Made by a program: the position numbers and the translations under genes. Under the pieces are notes generated by a model, which was given only the letters and a program-made list of their open reading frames with translations, ran no database searches and was not told the origin of the DNA. A stretch of DNA of 62,141 nt, taken from Bacteroidota bacterium. GTDB taxonomy: Bacteria > Bacteroidota > Bacteroidia > Bacteroidales > F082. Shown one piece after another: positions 35,812 through 41,946 of this stretch. The DNA lies in NCBI GenBank assembly GCA_016845105.1, contig JAERTF010000148.1:1-62141 (forward strand), written 5' to 3'. Within the stretch, counting starts at the first letter, position 1, and each line of letters opens with the position of its first letter.

Positions 35812-36315
35812 ATGACCACATCAAACACTGGATCAGAAAGCGAAAATTTATCGAGGATAAAGGAGATACTATTTGGTGAAGACCTACAAAGTATCGATCA
35901 AAAGTTTAAATCTTTCAAAGATGAAAATTCGGTAATCCATGAATCACTAAAAAAAGAACTAGAAAGTCGACTCGAAAATATTGAAAAACTACTCGATGAA
36001 AAGGCCAAAGAAGTTGATGAAGTTCATGAGAAGAGTGCTGAAGTACAAAAGAATATAAATAAAGATATAAAACAGGAAATAGTTAAAATAACTCTTGAGG
36101 TTAAGAATGAAAAGCAAAAATTTGAAGAAAATCTAAATACCAAAATAAATGATTTATCTTCATTGATTTCTAACCTCGAGAGTTCATTAAACATAGCTAT
36201 TAGTGACCTTAAAAAAGATCATAGTAAAGCTATAAGTATTATAGATGAAAACAAAGTTAGCAAGGTTGATTTGGCTGACTTTTTAATTGATCTGGGTGAA
36301 AAACTCAAAAAATAA
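35812..36315 (+). CDS. Coiled-coil protein of the GTPase cluster
   Basis: A 167-residue cytoplasmic protein with no family I recognise. It is extremely rich in Lys, Glu, Asp and Ser. After a polar N-terminus (MTTSNTGSESENLSRIKEIL) it has a near-continuous heptad pattern from about 40 to 155 (ESLKKELESRLENIEKLLDE; IKQEIVKITLEVKNEKQKFE). The short end VDLADFLIDLGEKLKK may be a docking helix. There is no signal peptide or membrane helix. It is the first gene of a tight set with the membrane protein (14-nt gap), GTPase and kinase, so it is probably a scaffold or effector of that module. This is inference from gene order only. Confidence 0.8.
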   Translation: MTTSNTGSESENLSRIKEILFGEDLQSIDQKFKSFKDENSVIHESLKKELESRLENIEKLLDEKAKEVDEVHEKSAEVQKNINKDIKQEIVKITLEVKNEKQKFEENLNTKINDLSSLISNLESSLNIAISDLKKDHSKAISIIDENKVSKVDLADFLIDLGEKLKK

Positions 36316-36329
36316 CTCATAATAATTTT

Positions 36330-38066
36330 ATGTCAGATTCAAGTGGTAATATGGGGATTTTTGGGAACCTCTCCGAAATTAAGCTAAATGAGCTTAGAAA
36401 AATAATCATAGGTTTAGACACTGAAGATCTTAAACGTCTTGCTCTTTTTGTTAATGATCCTGAAGCCTTTTCAGAAGAAATTAGCGAACTATTACCAAAT
36501 AGCATAAAAATAATGCTCGACAAGGGAAAGGTATCTTATACTGAATTAATTCCCCTTGTTGAAACCACCCTAAAAGATAGTATAAAAAGAAACCCATATA
36601 CTCTATCTGATATTTTATTCCCAGTTATGCTGCCAGCCATTAGAAAAGCTGTTGCAGAAGATATCAGAAATATGGTTAATTCACTTAACACAACGCTTGA
36701 GAATGGGTTTTCACCAAAACGAATTGGTTGGCGATTCAAAGCAATGTTTAGTGGTATGTCGTATGCTGAAATGGTATTATCACAGGCATATATTTATAGA
36801 GTTAAACAGGTTTTTCTTATACATAAAGAAACAGGACTATTGTTAAACAGCATTTCAGACAATGAAGATTCCGTAACCAAAGATGAGGATATGGTTTCAT
36901 CAATGCTAAGTGCCATAAAAGACTTTGTACAAGATTCCTTTAGTGTTGATGATAATAATGAGCTTAATACTATTCAGGTAGGTAAATTTAATATTTGGAT
37001 TGAACAGGGGCCCGGTGCAATATTAGCAGCAATAGTTGATGGTGATGCACCCTCTGGTTATCGCACTATCCTAAAAGAAACCATTGAGAAAATCCATTTA
37101 AAGCAAGCATATGACCTTGAAAAGTTTGATGGTGTCATCAAGGTTTTTGATAAAACCAAACCTTATTTGCAGAGCTGTATAATAAGTGAGCAGAAAGTAA
37201 AGAAAAAGAAAAAGCCACTTATATTAATAATACTATTAATTATATTATTTGGCTTAGGGGGATATTGGGCATACATATCAATTGATAGATCAATTAGAAT
37301 TAGCAATCTCGCAAGTGCCCTTAATGCAGAACCAGGAATATTGATCACAGACGATAATACGCACAAAGGAAAAACAATGTTCGAGGGATTACGAGATCCA
37401 TTAGCAGCTGACACATATGTACTAACGAATAAGATGAACGTCGACTCGACCGAAGTTGGTTATGAGTTAAAGCCCTACATATCACTTGAAGAATCAATGA
37501 TTCTAAAAAGAGCATACTCCATACTTAAGCCCCCTTCTACGGTTAGCCTTTATTTAAAAAATGGCATATTATATGCTTCTGGTGAAGTAAAAGAAGATTG
37601 GATTGCCTTTGCAAATAATAATTATCAATTAATAACAGGCATTACAGGTTTTGATATAATCTCATTAAATATTCTTACAAGCATCGAAAAAGTAGAGAGG
37701 GTTTGTTTAGCAATTGAACAGTTTTATTTTGTTTTTAAATACAATGTTTTTGAGCTTAGCAAGCAACAAAAAGTGAAGTTTGAAAGCCTTATAAATGAGG
37801 TTAATAATGTACTAGATTTTAATTTTGCTCAAGATTCTGTACCTGTAATTATTGTTACTGCTCACACAAGTCACGAAGGCAATTCTGAAGCAAATGAGAA
37901 AATAGCATTTGATCGTGCTCAACAATTCATAAACTTGATGATTGAGGCTGGTATCCCTATGGAAGTACTTGTTCCAAAAGCTGATTTTATTGAGGATCTT
38001 GAAGCAGAGTTCCCCGTTCGATCTGTTTCTTTCAAAGTGTTTTATTCAAAACCCGAAGATTTATGA
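36330..38066 (+). CDS. Transmembrane protein with cytoplasmic roadblock-like region and periplasmic BON/OmpA-like region
   Basis: A 578-residue protein with one membrane helix at about 296-316, preceded by KVKKKKK, which fixes the N-terminal half in the cytoplasm. Residues about 10-150 are helical. Residues about 155-260 (RVKQVFLIHKETGLLLNSIS; GKFNIWIEQGPGAILAAIVD; IEKIH) look like a roadblock/longin-type fold, the partner fold of Ras-like GTPases. Outside are LRDPLAAD (354-361), a BON-like segment (390-445) and an OmpA/MotB-like C-terminus (455-575) with VTAHTSHEGNSEANEKIAFD. The usual Asp of HTDxxG is Ser514, while Arg529 is kept. From memory, cyanobacterial OmpA-family proteins share this layout. 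Its last 4 nt overlap the GTPase gene. Confidence 0.8.
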   Translation: MSDSSGNMGIFGNLSEIKLNELRKIIIGLDTEDLKRLALFVNDPEAFSEEISELLPNSIKIMLDKGKVSYTELIPLVETTLKDSIKRNPYTLSDILFPVMLPAIRKAVAEDIRNMVNSLNTTLENGFSPKRIGWRFKAMFSGMSYAEMVLSQAYIYRVKQVFLIHKETGLLLNSISDNEDSVTKDEDMVSSMLSAIKDFVQDSFSVDDNNELNTIQVGKFNIWIEQGPGAILAAIVDGDAPSGYRTILKETIEKIHLKQAYDLEKFDGVIKVFDKTKPYLQSCIISEQKVKKKKKPLILIILLIILFGLGGYWAYISIDRSIRISNLASALNAEPGILITDDNTHKGKTMFEGLRDPLAADTYVLTNKMNVDSTEVGYELKPYISLEESMILKRAYSILKPPSTVSLYLKNGILYASGEVKEDWIAFANNNYQLITGITGFDIISLNILTSIEKVERVCLAIEQFYFVFKYNVFELSKQQKVKFESLINEVNNVLDFNFAQDSVPVIIVTAHTSHEGNSEANEKIAFDRAQQFINLMIEAGIPMEVLVPKADFIEDLEAEFPVRSVSFKVFYSKPEDL

Positions 38067-38560
38067 TTAAAAAGAAAATAATAATGTTGGGCTCGTTTGC
38101 TGTCGGAAAAACTAGCTTGGTTCAACGTTTTGTTAATAGTATCTTTTCTGAGAAGTACCAAACAACAATTGGGGTTAAAATAGATCAGAAAATTGTTGAT
38201 GTAGATGGTTCAGAGGTAAACTTGTTACTATGGGACATACACGGAGAAGATGATTATCAAAAAGTTAAACCTGCCTACATAATGGGGTCCTCAGGCTGTT
38301 TCATTGTAGTTGATGGTACACGTAAAGCTAGTTTAGAAATTGGATACGAACTAATCGAAATGGCAAAAAAAACAGCTCCCAATTCTGTTATTGTTGTCCT
38401 AATAAATAAATGCGATTTAAAAGATGAATGGGATATTACAAATGATGATATTGCTGGCTTAAGAAGTGCTGGATTCGAAGTTATTGAAACCAGTGCCAAA
38501 ACAAATTCAGCCATTGATACTGCTTTTTATACCATATCTAAGTTAATGCTAAATAAATAA
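38063..38560 (+). CDS. Ras/Rab-like small GTPase
   Basis: A 165-residue single-domain GTPase with all G motifs: G1 GSFAVGKT (10-17), G2 Thr in QTTIGVKI (33-40), G3 WDIHGED (57-63), G4 NKCD (115-118) and G5 TSAK (143-146). The residue matching Ras Gln61 is Glu62 (GED for GQE), so intrinsic hydrolysis may be slow or depend on a partner. It lacks a C-terminal prenylation cysteine, so recruitment to the membrane must come from a partner protein. The ATG overlaps the end of the OmpA-like gene (ATGA), implying coupled translation. It belongs to the prokaryotic Ras-like families of mostly unknown function, related in principle to MglA. Confidence 0.93.
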   Translation: MIKKKIIMLGSFAVGKTSLVQRFVNSIFSEKYQTTIGVKIDQKIVDVDGSEVNLLLWDIHGEDDYQKVKPAYIMGSSGCFIVVDGTRKASLEIGYELIEMAKKTAPNSVIVVLINKCDLKDEWDITNDDIAGLRSAGFEVIETSAKTNSAIDTAFYTISKLMLNK

Positions 38561-38563
38561 CCC

Positions 38564-40081
38564 ATGCTTAACGACTTACCAAAGGATATAATTGAATATC
38601 TCATAACAGAATTACCACCGTTTACTGGTGTCCTAATTATTAGAACTGATAGTGAAGGAAATATAATTGATCATCATGGCCCTCATAAAGAATATCTACG
38701 ACTAGTACCTAAAGTTGGAAAACTTATTCATGAGCATGTACCAGCATTATTCTCAATGGTGCCACCCTTGGTATCACCAATGGTTCTTCATAATATCCAG
38801 TCCAATACAGATGTATATGCTGACATACATATTGTTGAGGCGAACGAAGACGAATATTGGATATTTTTTGTTGACCAAAGTAATCAGGTTGCAGGTATTA
38901 GAGATATTATTCAGAAAATGAATGAAGAAAAATTCAGAGAAGAAACAAAGGTTTCTTTGCCTGAATCTTCAGAACCATATGAAGTATTCGAAGACTTGAT
39001 TTTAAATATTGAAAATGAATATACTGCAACTATTCATTCTAAAATTCCATCTTGGTTTAGTTCACTTGCTCCGAAATATTACTTAAATTCAGAAATAAAG
39101 TTTACTGAGATTTTTCCGTACTTGGAGGTGTTTATGTTTGAGGCCAATGATTTTTGGTCTAACAAAAAGGATGGTAAAATCGAATCAGGAATATGGTCAG
39201 AAACAATAAAAAAAGGTAAAGATATTGCATTAACAGCTTTTGCAATTTACAACAAGGGTAAGAAGTTTATGTTAATTCGGCCAATGGACGATGATATCGA
39301 TAAAGAGCAAATGGCCTTACAAATGGCCAGGGAGCAAAAACTAGCCTACGAGAAACTTGAAAAAACCGAAAGTAAACTTAAAACATTATTAGATTATAAG
39401 GATAAATTCGTGTCAATTGTTTCACATGATCTTAGATCACCTGTTGCAGCAGTGTTGGGCATAGCCGAATTATTGGTAAATGACAAAAATGAGCTAACAA
39501 AACTTGATGACTTTTATCAGGAAATGATTTTTAATATTCGTGAGGAAATGATTAGATTGTTGGACTATAATGATAAACTGTATCATTGGTCAAATCTTGA
39601 ATTAGGCAATTTTAAAGTTGTTAAAGAGAAAGCCAGTCTTCTTAAGATTATTGAGATTACCCATAGAACCGCTAGCAATAAGCTAGAAGAAAAGGGAATT
39701 AAATTTTCAACAAACCTTAAAACCGATATTACTATCGAAGTTGACCTATCATTATTCCAACAGGTGTTAAATAACCTTGTTTCAAATGCCATAAAATTCA
39801 CTCCCAAAAATGGTAATATTTTTGTTAGAGTAAAAGAAGATGATGACATAAGAATTTGCGTAGTAGATTCAGGAATTGGAATCCCCAAAGATATTAGCAA
39901 AAGTATATTTTCTGGATTCTCAAGAAAAAGCACAATGGGTACTGGTGGCGAGAAAGGCACAGGGCTTGGGTTAGGAATTGTAAAAAAAATAATTGATGCC
40001 CATGGTTTTACAATCAATGTGGAGTCAGAAATAGGTGCTGGATCCAAATTTATTATTACAATACCTGAAAAAGCTGGATAA
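38564..40081 (+). CDS. Soluble sensor histidine kinase of the GTPase cluster
   Basis: A 505-residue kinase without a membrane helix. Residues 1-120 form a PAS-like sensor (YLITELPPFTGVLIIRTDSE; DVYADIHIVEANEDEYWIFF). Residues about 140-240 are a second unassigned region (KIPSWFSSLAPKYYLNSEIK). A short coil (245-275) leads to the H-box FVSIVSHDLRSPVAAVLGIA with phospho-acceptor His288. The catalytic domain has N-box LVSNAIKFTPKNG, G1 DSGIGIP and G2 GTGLGLGIVKKIIDAHG. No response regulator is encoded nearby, so its partner is elsewhere. It starts 3 nt after the GTPase stop, so the two are certainly cotranscribed. Similar N-terminal regions occur beside such GTPases, which suggests the sensor reads GTPase or membrane-protein state. 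Confidence 0.9.
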   Translation: MLNDLPKDIIEYLITELPPFTGVLIIRTDSEGNIIDHHGPHKEYLRLVPKVGKLIHEHVPALFSMVPPLVSPMVLHNIQSNTDVYADIHIVEANEDEYWIFFVDQSNQVAGIRDIIQKMNEEKFREETKVSLPESSEPYEVFEDLILNIENEYTATIHSKIPSWFSSLAPKYYLNSEIKFTEIFPYLEVFMFEANDFWSNKKDGKIESGIWSETIKKGKDIALTAFAIYNKGKKFMLIRPMDDDIDKEQMALQMAREQKLAYEKLEKTESKLKTLLDYKDKFVSIVSHDLRSPVAAVLGIAELLVNDKNELTKLDDFYQEMIFNIREEMIRLLDYNDKLYHWSNLELGNFKVVKEKASLLKIIEITHRTASNKLEEKGIKFSTNLKTDITIEVDLSLFQQVLNNLVSNAIKFTPKNGNIFVRVKEDDDIRICVVDSGIGIPKDISKSIFSGFSRKSTMGTGGEKGTGLGLGIVKKIIDAHGFTINVESEIGAGSKFIITIPEKAG

Positions 40082-40088
40082 TACAATA

Positions 40089-41918
40089 CTATTTTCCTAA
40101 TAAACTCTTCAGTATATCTGTTCTTCCGAGTTTTTCTAAACTAGCTTTTATTCTATTTCTAAATTCGGGTTTATACCAAAAGAAGTAGATATGTTGTTTT
40201 TCCTTTTCACTTTTCGAACGTGCCACATAAACAGGCTTTAAATCATACGGATTTAGTCCTGTATAATACATAACTGTTGCGTTTGTCATAGGTGTTGGTG
40301 TAAAACCCTGGACTTGTTCTAATTGAAGCCCAGCAGCCTTTGTGTCTGCAGCAAGTTTAGCCATATCCTCTTCTTTACTTCCGGGATGACTAGAAATAAA
40401 ATACGGGATAATTTGCTGATTTAATCCAGCCTTTTGGGATATTGAATTAAACTTTTTCTTGAAAGAATCATACAACTCAAATGATGGCTTTCTCATTATT
40501 TTTAGCACATTATCCGAAGTATGTTCAGGAGCTATTTTTAATCTGCCACTTACATTTTTTGTGATCAATCTTTTCAAATAGCCATCGATGTCATCACCAC
40601 CTTTTACATTGCGTTCCTTCATCAACAAATCGTATCGTATACCACTACCTATATTTACTTTTTCTATTTCTGGAAGGGATTCCACTTTATCATAAAGCTC
40701 CATTAAAGGTTTATGTGATGTGTTTAAATTAAAACAAACCTTTGGAAAAATGCATGATGGTCGTCTGCATTTTTCACAAATACTACGGTCAACACCCTTC
40801 ATCTTATACATATTGGCAGAGGGTCCACCCAAGTCTGATAAACTACCTTTAAAATCTGGCAGCTGGCTTACTTTTTTTACTTCTTCAAGAATCGATTTTT
40901 CGGATCTGGAAGATACGAATTTGCCTTGATGTGCTGAAATAGTACAAAAACTGCAGCCCCCAAAACATCCTCGATGGATATTTACTGAGAACTTAATCAT
41001 TTCATAAGCAGGAATTGGATTTTTACTCTTATATTTAAAATGAGGCAAACGAGTGAAAGGAAGGTCATAAATCTTATCTATTTCCTTTTCCTCCAAAAAT
41101 GCATTTGCCGGATTAACCACCAAAAACTCATCATCAATATGCTGAACAAGTCTATTTGCATGTATCCGATTTGATTCAACTTCAATGGTTTTGAAATTTC
41201 TGGCAAATAATACTTTATCTGCTAAACAATCCTTATGCGAAAATAAAAAAATAGTTTCCCAATTTCTATTAACGGGAATTTCCATTTGAGATTTCACAAG
41301 AAAACCAGTTTGAGGAATAGTATTTAGCTTATTAAAGGGAACTCCTTTTTGAAGTAGACGCACAATTTCAACAATAGGTTTTTCACCCATCCCATATACC
41401 ATTAAATCAGCACCCGACTGCCATAACATACTCTTTTGAAGCTCATTTTTCCAATAATCATAATGAGTAAATCTACGCATAGAGGCTTCTACTCCTCCAA
41501 TTATTACGGGAGTTTCTGGAAAAAGATCCTTAAGTATTTTAGTGTAAACTATAGTTGGATAATCAGGACGAAACCCTGACTTATTACCTGGGGTATAAGC
41601 ATCATTTGACCTAAGCCGACGATTAGCTGTATAATGATTTACCATTGAATCCATTACTCCAGCCGAAACACCAAAAAATAAACGGGGTGTGCCAAGTTTC
41701 TTGAAATCCCTTAAATCATCTTTCCAATTGGGTTGAGGAACAATTGCTACCTTTAGTCCAAGATCCTCTAACACTCTTCCAATTACAGCCATTCCAAAAG
41801 ATGGATGATCAATGTATGCATCTCCAGTAAAGAGTATAACATCTAACTCATCCCATCCTCTTTCTTTTACTTCTTTTCTTGTTGTGGGTAGCCAGCTCTG
41901 TCTTGTTAGTTTTTCCAT
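40089..41918 (-). CDS. YgiQ-family radical SAM protein
   Basis: A 609-residue member of the YgiQ (UPF0313) family. The radical SAM cluster motif is HRGCFGGCSFC (CxxxCxxC), with GGVEASMRRFTHYDYW in the N-terminal cobalamin-binding-like domain and a C-terminal second Cys-containing segment (CEKCRRPSCIFPKVC). I start at ATG 41918 (MEKLTRQSWLPTTRKEVKER); the TTG at 41939 adds seven unlikely residues. The physiological substrate is unknown. It follows dapF by 28 nt on the same strand, so the two are probably cotranscribed. It is convergent with the histidine kinase gene (7-nt gap). Confidence 0.9.
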   Translation of the reverse strand: MEKLTRQSWLPTTRKEVKERGWDELDVILFTGDAYIDHPSFGMAVIGRVLEDLGLKVAIVPQPNWKDDLRDFKKLGTPRLFFGVSAGVMDSMVNHYTANRRLRSNDAYTPGNKSGFRPDYPTIVYTKILKDLFPETPVIIGGVEASMRRFTHYDYWKNELQKSMLWQSGADLMVYGMGEKPIVEIVRLLQKGVPFNKLNTIPQTGFLVKSQMEIPVNRNWETIFLFSHKDCLADKVLFARNFKTIEVESNRIHANRLVQHIDDEFLVVNPANAFLEEKEIDKIYDLPFTRLPHFKYKSKNPIPAYEMIKFSVNIHRGCFGGCSFCTISAHQGKFVSSRSEKSILEEVKKVSQLPDFKGSLSDLGGPSANMYKMKGVDRSICEKCRRPSCIFPKVCFNLNTSHKPLMELYDKVESLPEIEKVNIGSGIRYDLLMKERNVKGGDDIDGYLKRLITKNVSGRLKIAPEHTSDNVLKIMRKPSFELYDSFKKKFNSISQKAGLNQQIIPYFISSHPGSKEEDMAKLAADTKAAGLQLEQVQGFTPTPMTNATVMYYTGLNPYDLKPVYVARSKSEKEKQHIYFFWYKPEFRNRIKASLEKLGRTDILKSLLGK

Positions 41919-41946
41919 AGGATAAGTAGTAAAATGCAATTAAAAG

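What the first reader, a model, noticed from the sequence alone, without database searches (positions are those of the whole stretch)
35812..40081. Ras/Rab-like GTPase operon linking an OmpA-type membrane protein to a soluble histidine kinase
Seen: four same-strand genes with gaps of 14, -4 and 3 nt encode a coiled-coil protein, a membrane protein, a GTPase with intact G1-G5 motifs and a soluble histidine kinase. Known: bacterial Ras-like GTPases such as MglA work with roadblock proteins (MglB). Inference: the cytoplasmic part of the membrane protein recruits and regulates the GTPase, and the kinase reports the state. This would join periplasmic sensing, a GTPase switch and phosphotransfer in one locus. 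A DUF4136 lipoprotein gene 33 nt upstream may be part of it.
Basis: partly seen in the sequence, partly recalled or inferred. Interest (0 to 1): 0.85.

Follow-up and report, generated by a model that had tools for sequence, protein, structure and literature searches.

The report
Rab-like GTPase relay at inner membrane
Four adjacent genes form an already described but untested bacterial signalling set built around a Rab-like on/off switch protein; the new point is that its membrane partner appears to carry the same kind of switch-binding domain that eukaryotes pair with Rab proteins.

Summary
In detail: four same-strand genes (35812-40081) with gaps of 14, -4 and 3 nt encode a coiled-coil protein, a one-TM protein with an OmpA-like tail, a Ras-type GTPase and a soluble histidine kinase. 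The gene set is not new: Wuichet & Sogaard-Andersen 2014 (PMC4316618) describe it as the Group 1 Rup system, and the window locus meets every described feature tested here; no tree was built. My paper searches listed no experimental study of such a system. GTPase and membrane domain were found in the same 13 of 296 genomes, unlinked in 3 of them. Output genes are more varied than HK or c-di-GMP enzymes. The DUF4136 lipoprotein gene is a local neighbour (5 of 25 loci).

The parts
35812..36315 (+). coiled-coil cytoplasmic protein (167 aa) with N-terminal LxxIKxILFGE motif
   Evidence: relatives
36330..38066 (+). inner-membrane protein (578 aa): helical N-terminus, roadblock/longin-like domain, TM, periplasmic region, OmpA-like C-terminus
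36792..37121 (+). roadblock/longin-like domain, residues ~155-264 of the membrane protein
   Evidence: AF2 topology bb-a-bbb-a, low confidence; Foldseek best 50 of 935 matches fit longin/roadblock families; hhalign to a roadblock profile
37206..37262 (+). transmembrane segment, residues ~293-311
   Evidence: hydropathy
37647..38063 (+). OmpA-like domain (from about residue 440); conserved Arg present, the Asp position is Ser
   Evidence: role of Asp and Arg recalled
38063..38560 (+). Rup Group 1-type small GTPase (165 aa), G3 = WDIHGE
38564..40081 (+). soluble histidine kinase (505 aa): tandem PAS-like N-terminus, HisKA, HATPase_c
38564..38938 (+). PAS-like N-terminal domain and linker helix (residues 1-125) with the conserved Gln117

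Best explanation
The locus is a Group 1 Rup system. A protein fixed in the inner membrane, with a periplasmic OmpA-like tail, carries a cytoplasmic roadblock/longin-like domain that acts as the platform (GEF and/or GAP) for a Rab-like GTPase. The coiled-coil protein joins the platform, perhaps through an N-terminal motif that the two proteins share. The GTPase, which lacks its own catalytic Gln, engages the PAS-like N-terminus of the histidine kinase, so envelope state is turned into nucleotide state and then into kinase output; the conserved Gln in the kinase linker helix may complete GTP hydrolysis in trans and reset the switch (the in-trans idea is that of the 2014 paper). Shown: gene set, co-occurrence, missing G3 Gln, conserved Gln. 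Supported but not proven: roadblock/longin identity and the PAS-like fold. Inferred: docking, direction, role of the Gln, response regulator encoded elsewhere.
For: Same gene order in 4 of 4 loci found (L033 ends inside the GTPase). GTPase and membrane-domain profiles hit the same 13 of 296 phylum genomes; 11 of 14 GTPase loci are next to the membrane gene, 3 (one family) are on other contigs. In the class sample the 6 other genomes whose match covers the membrane protein's cytoplasmic part all have the GTPase. Residues 158-264 are modelled bb-a-bbb-a; the 50 best of 935 Foldseek matches fit longin/roadblock families, including Mon1-Ccz1, LAMTOR, Sec22b, AP2 sigma and MglB. Profile match to roadblock: score 26.9 over 97 columns; best of 60 column shuffles 15.4; reversed 12.6 and 10.7; 7 other alignments at most 20.6. 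No Pfam roadblock in the own genome. Gln column in 18 of 21 output N-termini, the other 3 one column off. In L054 an NtrC-type regulator follows the kinase.
Against: The membrane-domain model is poor (mean pLDDT 49.9, pTM 0.37; 44-68 per ten-residue block from 151 to 270; 5 similar rows), and Foldseek scores are modest (best E 2.4e-4, 11 matches at or below 0.001, TM by query 0.19-0.34, many rmsd values above 7). hhalign probability is 24% with all rows, 11-37% with subsets and 2% with three window-clade rows. Profile hits to solved or Pfam longins are not significant (BET5 E 0.66; Fuz_longin_1 E 0.046 in 2 of 20) and plainly unrelated families score better in Pfam (UPF0058 1.8e-4, apolipoprotein 6.8e-4). 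No complex was predicted. Pfam finds no PAS in the window kinase. The OmpA Asp position is Ser (residue role recalled). No response regulator in the operon. In L065 and L066 the gene after the GTPase encodes a lone 138-139 aa domain without a kinase, so a kinase is not essential to the kind.
Confidence: 0.58

Rival explanations
1. The membrane protein is only an anchor or scaffold; the output protein's PAS-like N-terminus with the conserved Gln is the sole regulator (in-trans GAP) of the GTPase, as Wuichet & Sogaard-Andersen speculated, and the cytoplasmic domain is not a true roadblock/longin domain.
For: A conserved Gln is reproduced here and G3 lacks Gln in 21 of 23 rows; GTPase + output genes stay together when the membrane gene is elsewhere (L051-L053 vs L100-L102). 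The weak scores listed in the Against line of the best explanation also count here.
Against: Does not explain why the membrane domain was found in exactly the same genomes even when unlinked, nor the roadblock/longin-like signals. The Gln lies in a linker helix, and 2 of 23 GTPases do have a G3 Gln.
Confidence: 0.22
2. Information flows the other way, as the 2014 paper posits for actinobacterial conservons: the kinase senses a cue and sets the GTPase, and the GTPase acts through the membrane platform on the envelope.
For: No response regulator in the operon; the kinase N-terminus resembles tandem PAS sensors, so it could sense by itself (inference); the conservon also joins GTPase and kinase without a response regulator.
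Against: In L054, L055, L058 and L059 a response-regulator-type gene follows the kinase (Pfam run for L054 only), and in L061-L063 the kinase is replaced by a sigma54 activator (Pfam for L061 and L062; L063 by position and start sequence), which looks like downstream output.
Confidence: 0.15
3. Ordinary two-component and envelope genes that happen to be adjacent, with no shared function.
For: None found beyond the weak OmpA score in the window protein.
Against: Co-occurrence across 10 genera, including unlinked cases, and conserved order in distant relatives.
Confidence: 0.02

Closest known systems
Group 1 Rup systems (Wuichet & Sogaard-Andersen 2014, PMC4316618)
   Same: Coiled-coil protein, unknown domain + TM + OmpA protein, Ras-like GTPase with DxxG but no G3 Gln, output HK with a conserved N-terminal Gln; no Pfam roadblock gene in the genome.
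   Different: Here the unknown domain is tentatively assigned to the roadblock/longin fold, and outputs in relatives include a hybrid kinase, kinase + NtrC-type regulator, PAS-sigma54 activators and a stand-alone N-terminal domain.
Actinobacterial conservons (CvnA-D)
   Same: Small GTPase, roadblock-type protein and histidine kinase in one locus, no response regulator.
   Different: Conservon GTPase is MglA-family with a separate MglB and a TM-bearing kinase; here the roadblock-like domain sits inside a TM/OmpA protein and the kinase has no TM.
MglA/MglB polarity module
   Same: Ras-like GTPase with a roadblock partner; MglB is among the listed fold matches.
   Different: MglA lacks the G3 Asp that other GTPases keep (PMC4316618 passage; Thr78, PMC3000849 start of abstract); here Asp is invariant in 23 of 23 rows.
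Eukaryotic Rab/longin pairs such as Mon1-Ccz1 with Ypt7
   Same: Rab-like GTPase (the 60 PDB matches shown of 765 are almost all Rab-type by name) with a longin-type partner.
   Different: Bacterial, anchored through a TM/OmpA protein, output is a histidine kinase; no complex shown.

Membership tests
Group 1 Rup system | Ras-family small GTPase under 240 aa with conserved G3 Asp | tested here: met
   165 aa, PF00071 1.9e-33; Asp58 invariant in 23 of 23
Group 1 Rup system | no conserved Gln in G3 | tested here: met
   Glu in the window; Gln in 2 of 23 rows
Group 1 Rup system | not coupled to MglB (Pfam Robl_LC7) | tested here: met
   no PF03259 match at E<=0.001 in own genome
Group 1 Rup system | neighbouring coiled-coil cytoplasmic protein | tested here: met
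   coiled coil judged from sequence and weak Pfam matches, no predictor run
Group 1 Rup system | neighbouring protein with unknown domain, TM and C-terminal OmpA | tested here: met
   OmpA below Pfam cut-off in the window itself, above it in L057 and L064
Group 1 Rup system | output module with invariant Gln in its N-terminal region | tested here: met
   Gln in the column in 18 of 21, 3 one column off; whether it is the Gln of the paper's logo was not checked, figures are not held
Group 1 Rup system | placement in the Group 1 clade of a Rup tree | not tested
   no named Rup reference sequences were fetched; no tree built
MglA family | G3 Asp missing, MglB partner | tested here: not met
   Asp present; no PF03259 in own genome
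roadblock/longin superfamily (membrane-protein residues 155-264) | bb-a-bbb-a core | tested here: inconclusive
   topology present in the best AF2 model, but confidence is low; Foldseek matches agree
roadblock/longin superfamily (membrane-protein residues 155-264) | significant sequence/profile match | tested here: inconclusive
   hhalign E 8e-4 for a single comparison, prob 24% (2-37% with subsets), above 60 shuffles and 9 other controls; Pfam and PDB profile hits not significant
roadblock/longin superfamily (membrane-protein residues 155-264) | binds the GTPase | not testable with these tools
   no complex prediction or assay available
OmpA PG-binding domain | ligand-binding Asp and Arg (recalled) | tested here: not met
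   Arg kept in 18 of 18 rows by eye, but the Asp position is Ser in the window and its 4 closest relatives

The most novel reading that the evidence does not exclude
Bacterial Rup GTPases, which the 2014 study found to be very similar to Rab/Ras/Ran/Rho, have a built-in longin/roadblock partner in the membrane protein that co-occurs with them, so the Rab-longin partnership of eukaryotic membrane traffic has a working bacterial counterpart, used there to pass envelope signals to interchangeable outputs.
Probability: 0.4. Interest if true: 0.75.

Novelty: new member of a known kind. Interest (0 to 1): 0.5.

Why it matters
According to the 2014 paper no Rup GTPase had been characterised experimentally (one had been shown to be transcribed), and its GAP was unknown. 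A roadblock/longin-like domain in the co-occurring membrane protein names a candidate regulator, makes a direct binding and exchange test possible, and bears on whether the Rab-longin pairing is older than eukaryotes.

Tried and rejected
Rejected: DUF4136 lipoprotein as a system part (found by a single-sequence profile in the window and its 4 closest loci only, 5 of 25 loci; split by an in-frame stop in L035). Rejected: MglA/MglB system. Rejected: naming a response regulator partner; the L054 NtrC-type regulator has 48 matches in the own genome. Led nowhere: Pfam gave no family at E<=1 for the window's cytoplasmic domain; phmmer of the whole membrane protein against the PDB gave one chance match.

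Papers: of PMC4316618 I saw the outline with abstract, found passages, and sections 12 and 18, not its figures or supplement; of PMC3521125 and PMC7159879 found passages only; all other papers only as search listings. Searches listed no paper that I could recognise, from its title and the start of its abstract, as an experimental study of a Rup system or as assigning a longin or roadblock fold to its membrane protein; most subscription journals and bioRxiv are not held, so this is not proof of absence.

Rows left out: the roadblock profile used 13 of 20 fetched loci (L074 and L075 gave no usable ORF by my rule; L082, L083, L084, L086 and L090 were left out as near copies). The output alignment held 21 N-termini; L036, the second output of L052 and both of L053 were left out as near copies. 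A3 holds the window and 2 of the 4 close loci; L068 was dropped from the motif test (19 of 20 rows). Absence rests on a first look of whose candidates at most 7 and 12 per genome were scored.
Full report
OBSERVATION. One search gives the four ORFs at the stated coordinates with gaps of 14, -4 and 3 nt, and the DUF4136 gene 33 nt upstream. Pfam identifies a Ras-family GTPase (1.9e-33), a HisKA/HATPase_c kinase, a DUF4136 protein and a sub-threshold OmpA domain; the coiled-coil protein has only scattered weak matches of the sort coiled coils give. Hydropathy gives one TM segment in the 578 aa protein and none in the kinase. The one correction is that G3 reads WDIHGE: the catalytic Gln is missing.

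ALREADY DESCRIBED. Wuichet & Sogaard-Andersen 2014 (PMC4316618; passages, sections 18 and 12) describe Group 1 Rup GTPases encoded with a coiled-coil protein, a protein with a conserved unknown domain often followed by a TM helix and OmpA, and an output module (typically HK or diguanylate cyclase/phosphodiesterase) with an invariant Gln in its N-terminal region; the GTPases lack the G3 Gln. That is this locus. They report 0 of 71 small Rup sequences coupled to MglB, and that no Rup member had been characterised experimentally, though one had been shown to be transcribed. My searches listed no later experimental study that I could recognise in the open library.

CO-OCCURRENCE. The search for related loci gave four named Bacteroidota MAG loci with the same order; L033 ends inside the GTPase, so its kinase is not seen. 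In a phylum sample, a GTPase query at E<=1e-12 hit 13 of 296 genomes; a profile of the membrane-protein cytoplasmic part (A3) at E<=1e-8 hit the same 13 of 296, and a GTPase profile (A4) at E<=1e-15 again the same 13. These lie in 10 of 140 genera. The tests are not fully independent: 10 of the 20 A3 rows came from loci fetched by GTPase hits (7 came from the membrane-protein search, 3 from the window clade), and not all first-look candidates were scored. But the three genomes of one family (G207, G223, G308) supplied no A3 row and were still found, at E<=1e-78, with the membrane gene on another contig than the GTPase and a coiled-coil gene beside it. 11 of 14 GTPase loci are linked to the membrane gene. 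In the class sample 26 of 198 genomes matched the whole membrane protein; besides the own genome, 6 have a match covering the cytoplasmic part, and all 6 have the GTPase; the other 19 match elsewhere, mostly the OmpA part. In G118 the two genes are unlinked, and G152 has a second membrane-domain copy (L069) with a coiled-coil gene but no GTPase beside it. Related genomes are not independent events, so I give no probability.

THE MEMBRANE PROTEIN'S CYTOPLASMIC DOMAIN. AlphaFold2 with five close rows gave a poor overall model (mean pLDDT 49.9, pTM 0.37), with 158-264 arranged bb-a-bbb-a at 44-68 per ten-residue block. Foldseek against the PDB gave 935 matches at E<=10, 11 at or below 0.001. The 50 listed are AP-complex sigma and mu subunits, Ego3/Gse1, Mon1-Ccz1, GATOR1-Rag-Ragulator and LAMTOR chains, TRAPP, Sec22b, Vamp7, roadblock and MglB, plus two ~100-residue axonemal chains that I take for roadblock light chains by size; that all these hold longin or roadblock domains is recalled, not from the call. 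TM-scores by query are low (0.19-0.34), in part because much of the model is helical and outside this domain, and several rmsd values are large. Independently, hhalign of the 20-row profile (residues 148-275) with a 13-row roadblock profile built from PF03259 hits gave score 26.9 over 97 columns (E 8e-4 for one comparison, prob 24%); 60 column shuffles reached at most 15.4; reversed profiles gave 12.6 and 10.7; seven other alignments gave at most 20.6 (21 columns, the GTPase; next 20.0, the neighbouring helical region of the same protein). Leaving out the window clade gave 28.7, two halves of the roadblock set 24.1 and 28.1, three window-clade rows alone 18.7 (prob 2%). Sequence profiles against the PDB and Pfam gave only non-significant longin hits (BET5, E 0.66, best of 4; Fuz_longin_1 E 0.046 in 2 of 20, Intu_longin_1 E 0.036 in 1 of 20, behind unrelated families such as UPF0058 1.8e-4). 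I take the roadblock/longin assignment as likely (about 0.75, my judgement), not proven; which of the two permutations it is remains open. The own genome has no Pfam roadblock match. None of the 24 of 296 genomes with one is among the 13; by chance about one would be expected, so this says little.

OTHER PARTS. The kinase N-terminus (280 residues, pLDDT 65.7, 4 rows) matches LOV-PAS, bHLH-PAS, phytochrome and other sensor structures in the 50 listed of 1453 Foldseek matches, which fits tandem PAS-like domains; Pfam names no PAS there. Across 21 output N-termini one column is Gln in 18, and the remaining three (L066, L067, L068) have Gln one column away; in the window it is Gln117, in the helix after the first PAS-like domain. 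The paper's logo was not available, so identity with its invariant Gln is inferred. The G3 position is Gln in 2 of 23 GTPases (L034, L065), Glu in 15, and D, T, S, G or R in the other 6 (counted by eye). The coiled-coil and membrane proteins share a short N-terminal motif (LxxIRxILFG; hhalign 31.0 over 25 columns, prob 54%, vs at most 10.4 in 60 shuffles), which could be a common docking site. The OmpA-like domain keeps the Arg in 18 of 18 rows but has Ser at the Asp position in the 5 window-clade rows (the role of these residues is recalled).

OUTPUT DIVERSITY. Next to the GTPase in relatives lie: kinase-type genes by profile (L056, L057, L064, L067, L068), a hybrid HK-receiver (L060, Pfam), a kinase then a response-regulator-type gene (L054, L055, L058, L059; Pfam confirmed the NtrC type for L054 only), PAS-sigma54 activators (L061, L062 by Pfam; L063 by position and start sequence), a lone 138-139 aa N-terminal-type domain (L065, L066), and in one family a 307 aa protein with the N-terminal domain followed by a kinase (L051-L053). 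None of the 7 output proteins of relatives scanned by Pfam had GGDEF or EAL. The GTPase + adaptor domain and the coiled coil + membrane platform recur, and the effector is exchangeable; not every part was found everywhere (no coiled-coil gene seen beside L056, L065, L066, L068 and L070).

MECHANISM. Inferred: the membrane platform controls the GTPase, the GTPase engages the PAS-like adaptor of the output, and the kinase acts by way of a response regulator elsewhere. Direction is not settled, and the conservon-like reverse flow is a live rival.

Noticed in passing
L061 7502-9256, L062 4895-6679, L063 4902-6656: In one family the kinase is replaced by a PAS + sigma54-activator protein directly after the GTPase (Pfam for L061 and L062), an output type not named in the passages I read of the 2014 description.
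   Followed up: partly
L065 7157-7573; L066 5035-5454: The gene after the GTPase encodes only a ~138 aa domain with the conserved Gln and no effector domain; the membrane-domain protein there is short (304 and 289 aa) and ends before the place of TM and OmpA.
   Followed up: partly
window 35812-36315 and 36330-38066: The coiled-coil and membrane proteins share a short N-terminal LxxIRxILFG-type motif.
   Followed up: partly
L035 4838-5434: The DUF4136 lipoprotein gene of this relative is split in two by an in-frame stop.
   Followed up: no
L100, L101, L102: In one family the coiled-coil/membrane pair lies on a different contig from the GTPase/output pair.
   Followed up: yes
window 40089-41939 (-): Convergent neighbour with a CxxxCxxC-type radical-SAM-like motif seen by eye; not tested.
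   Followed up: no
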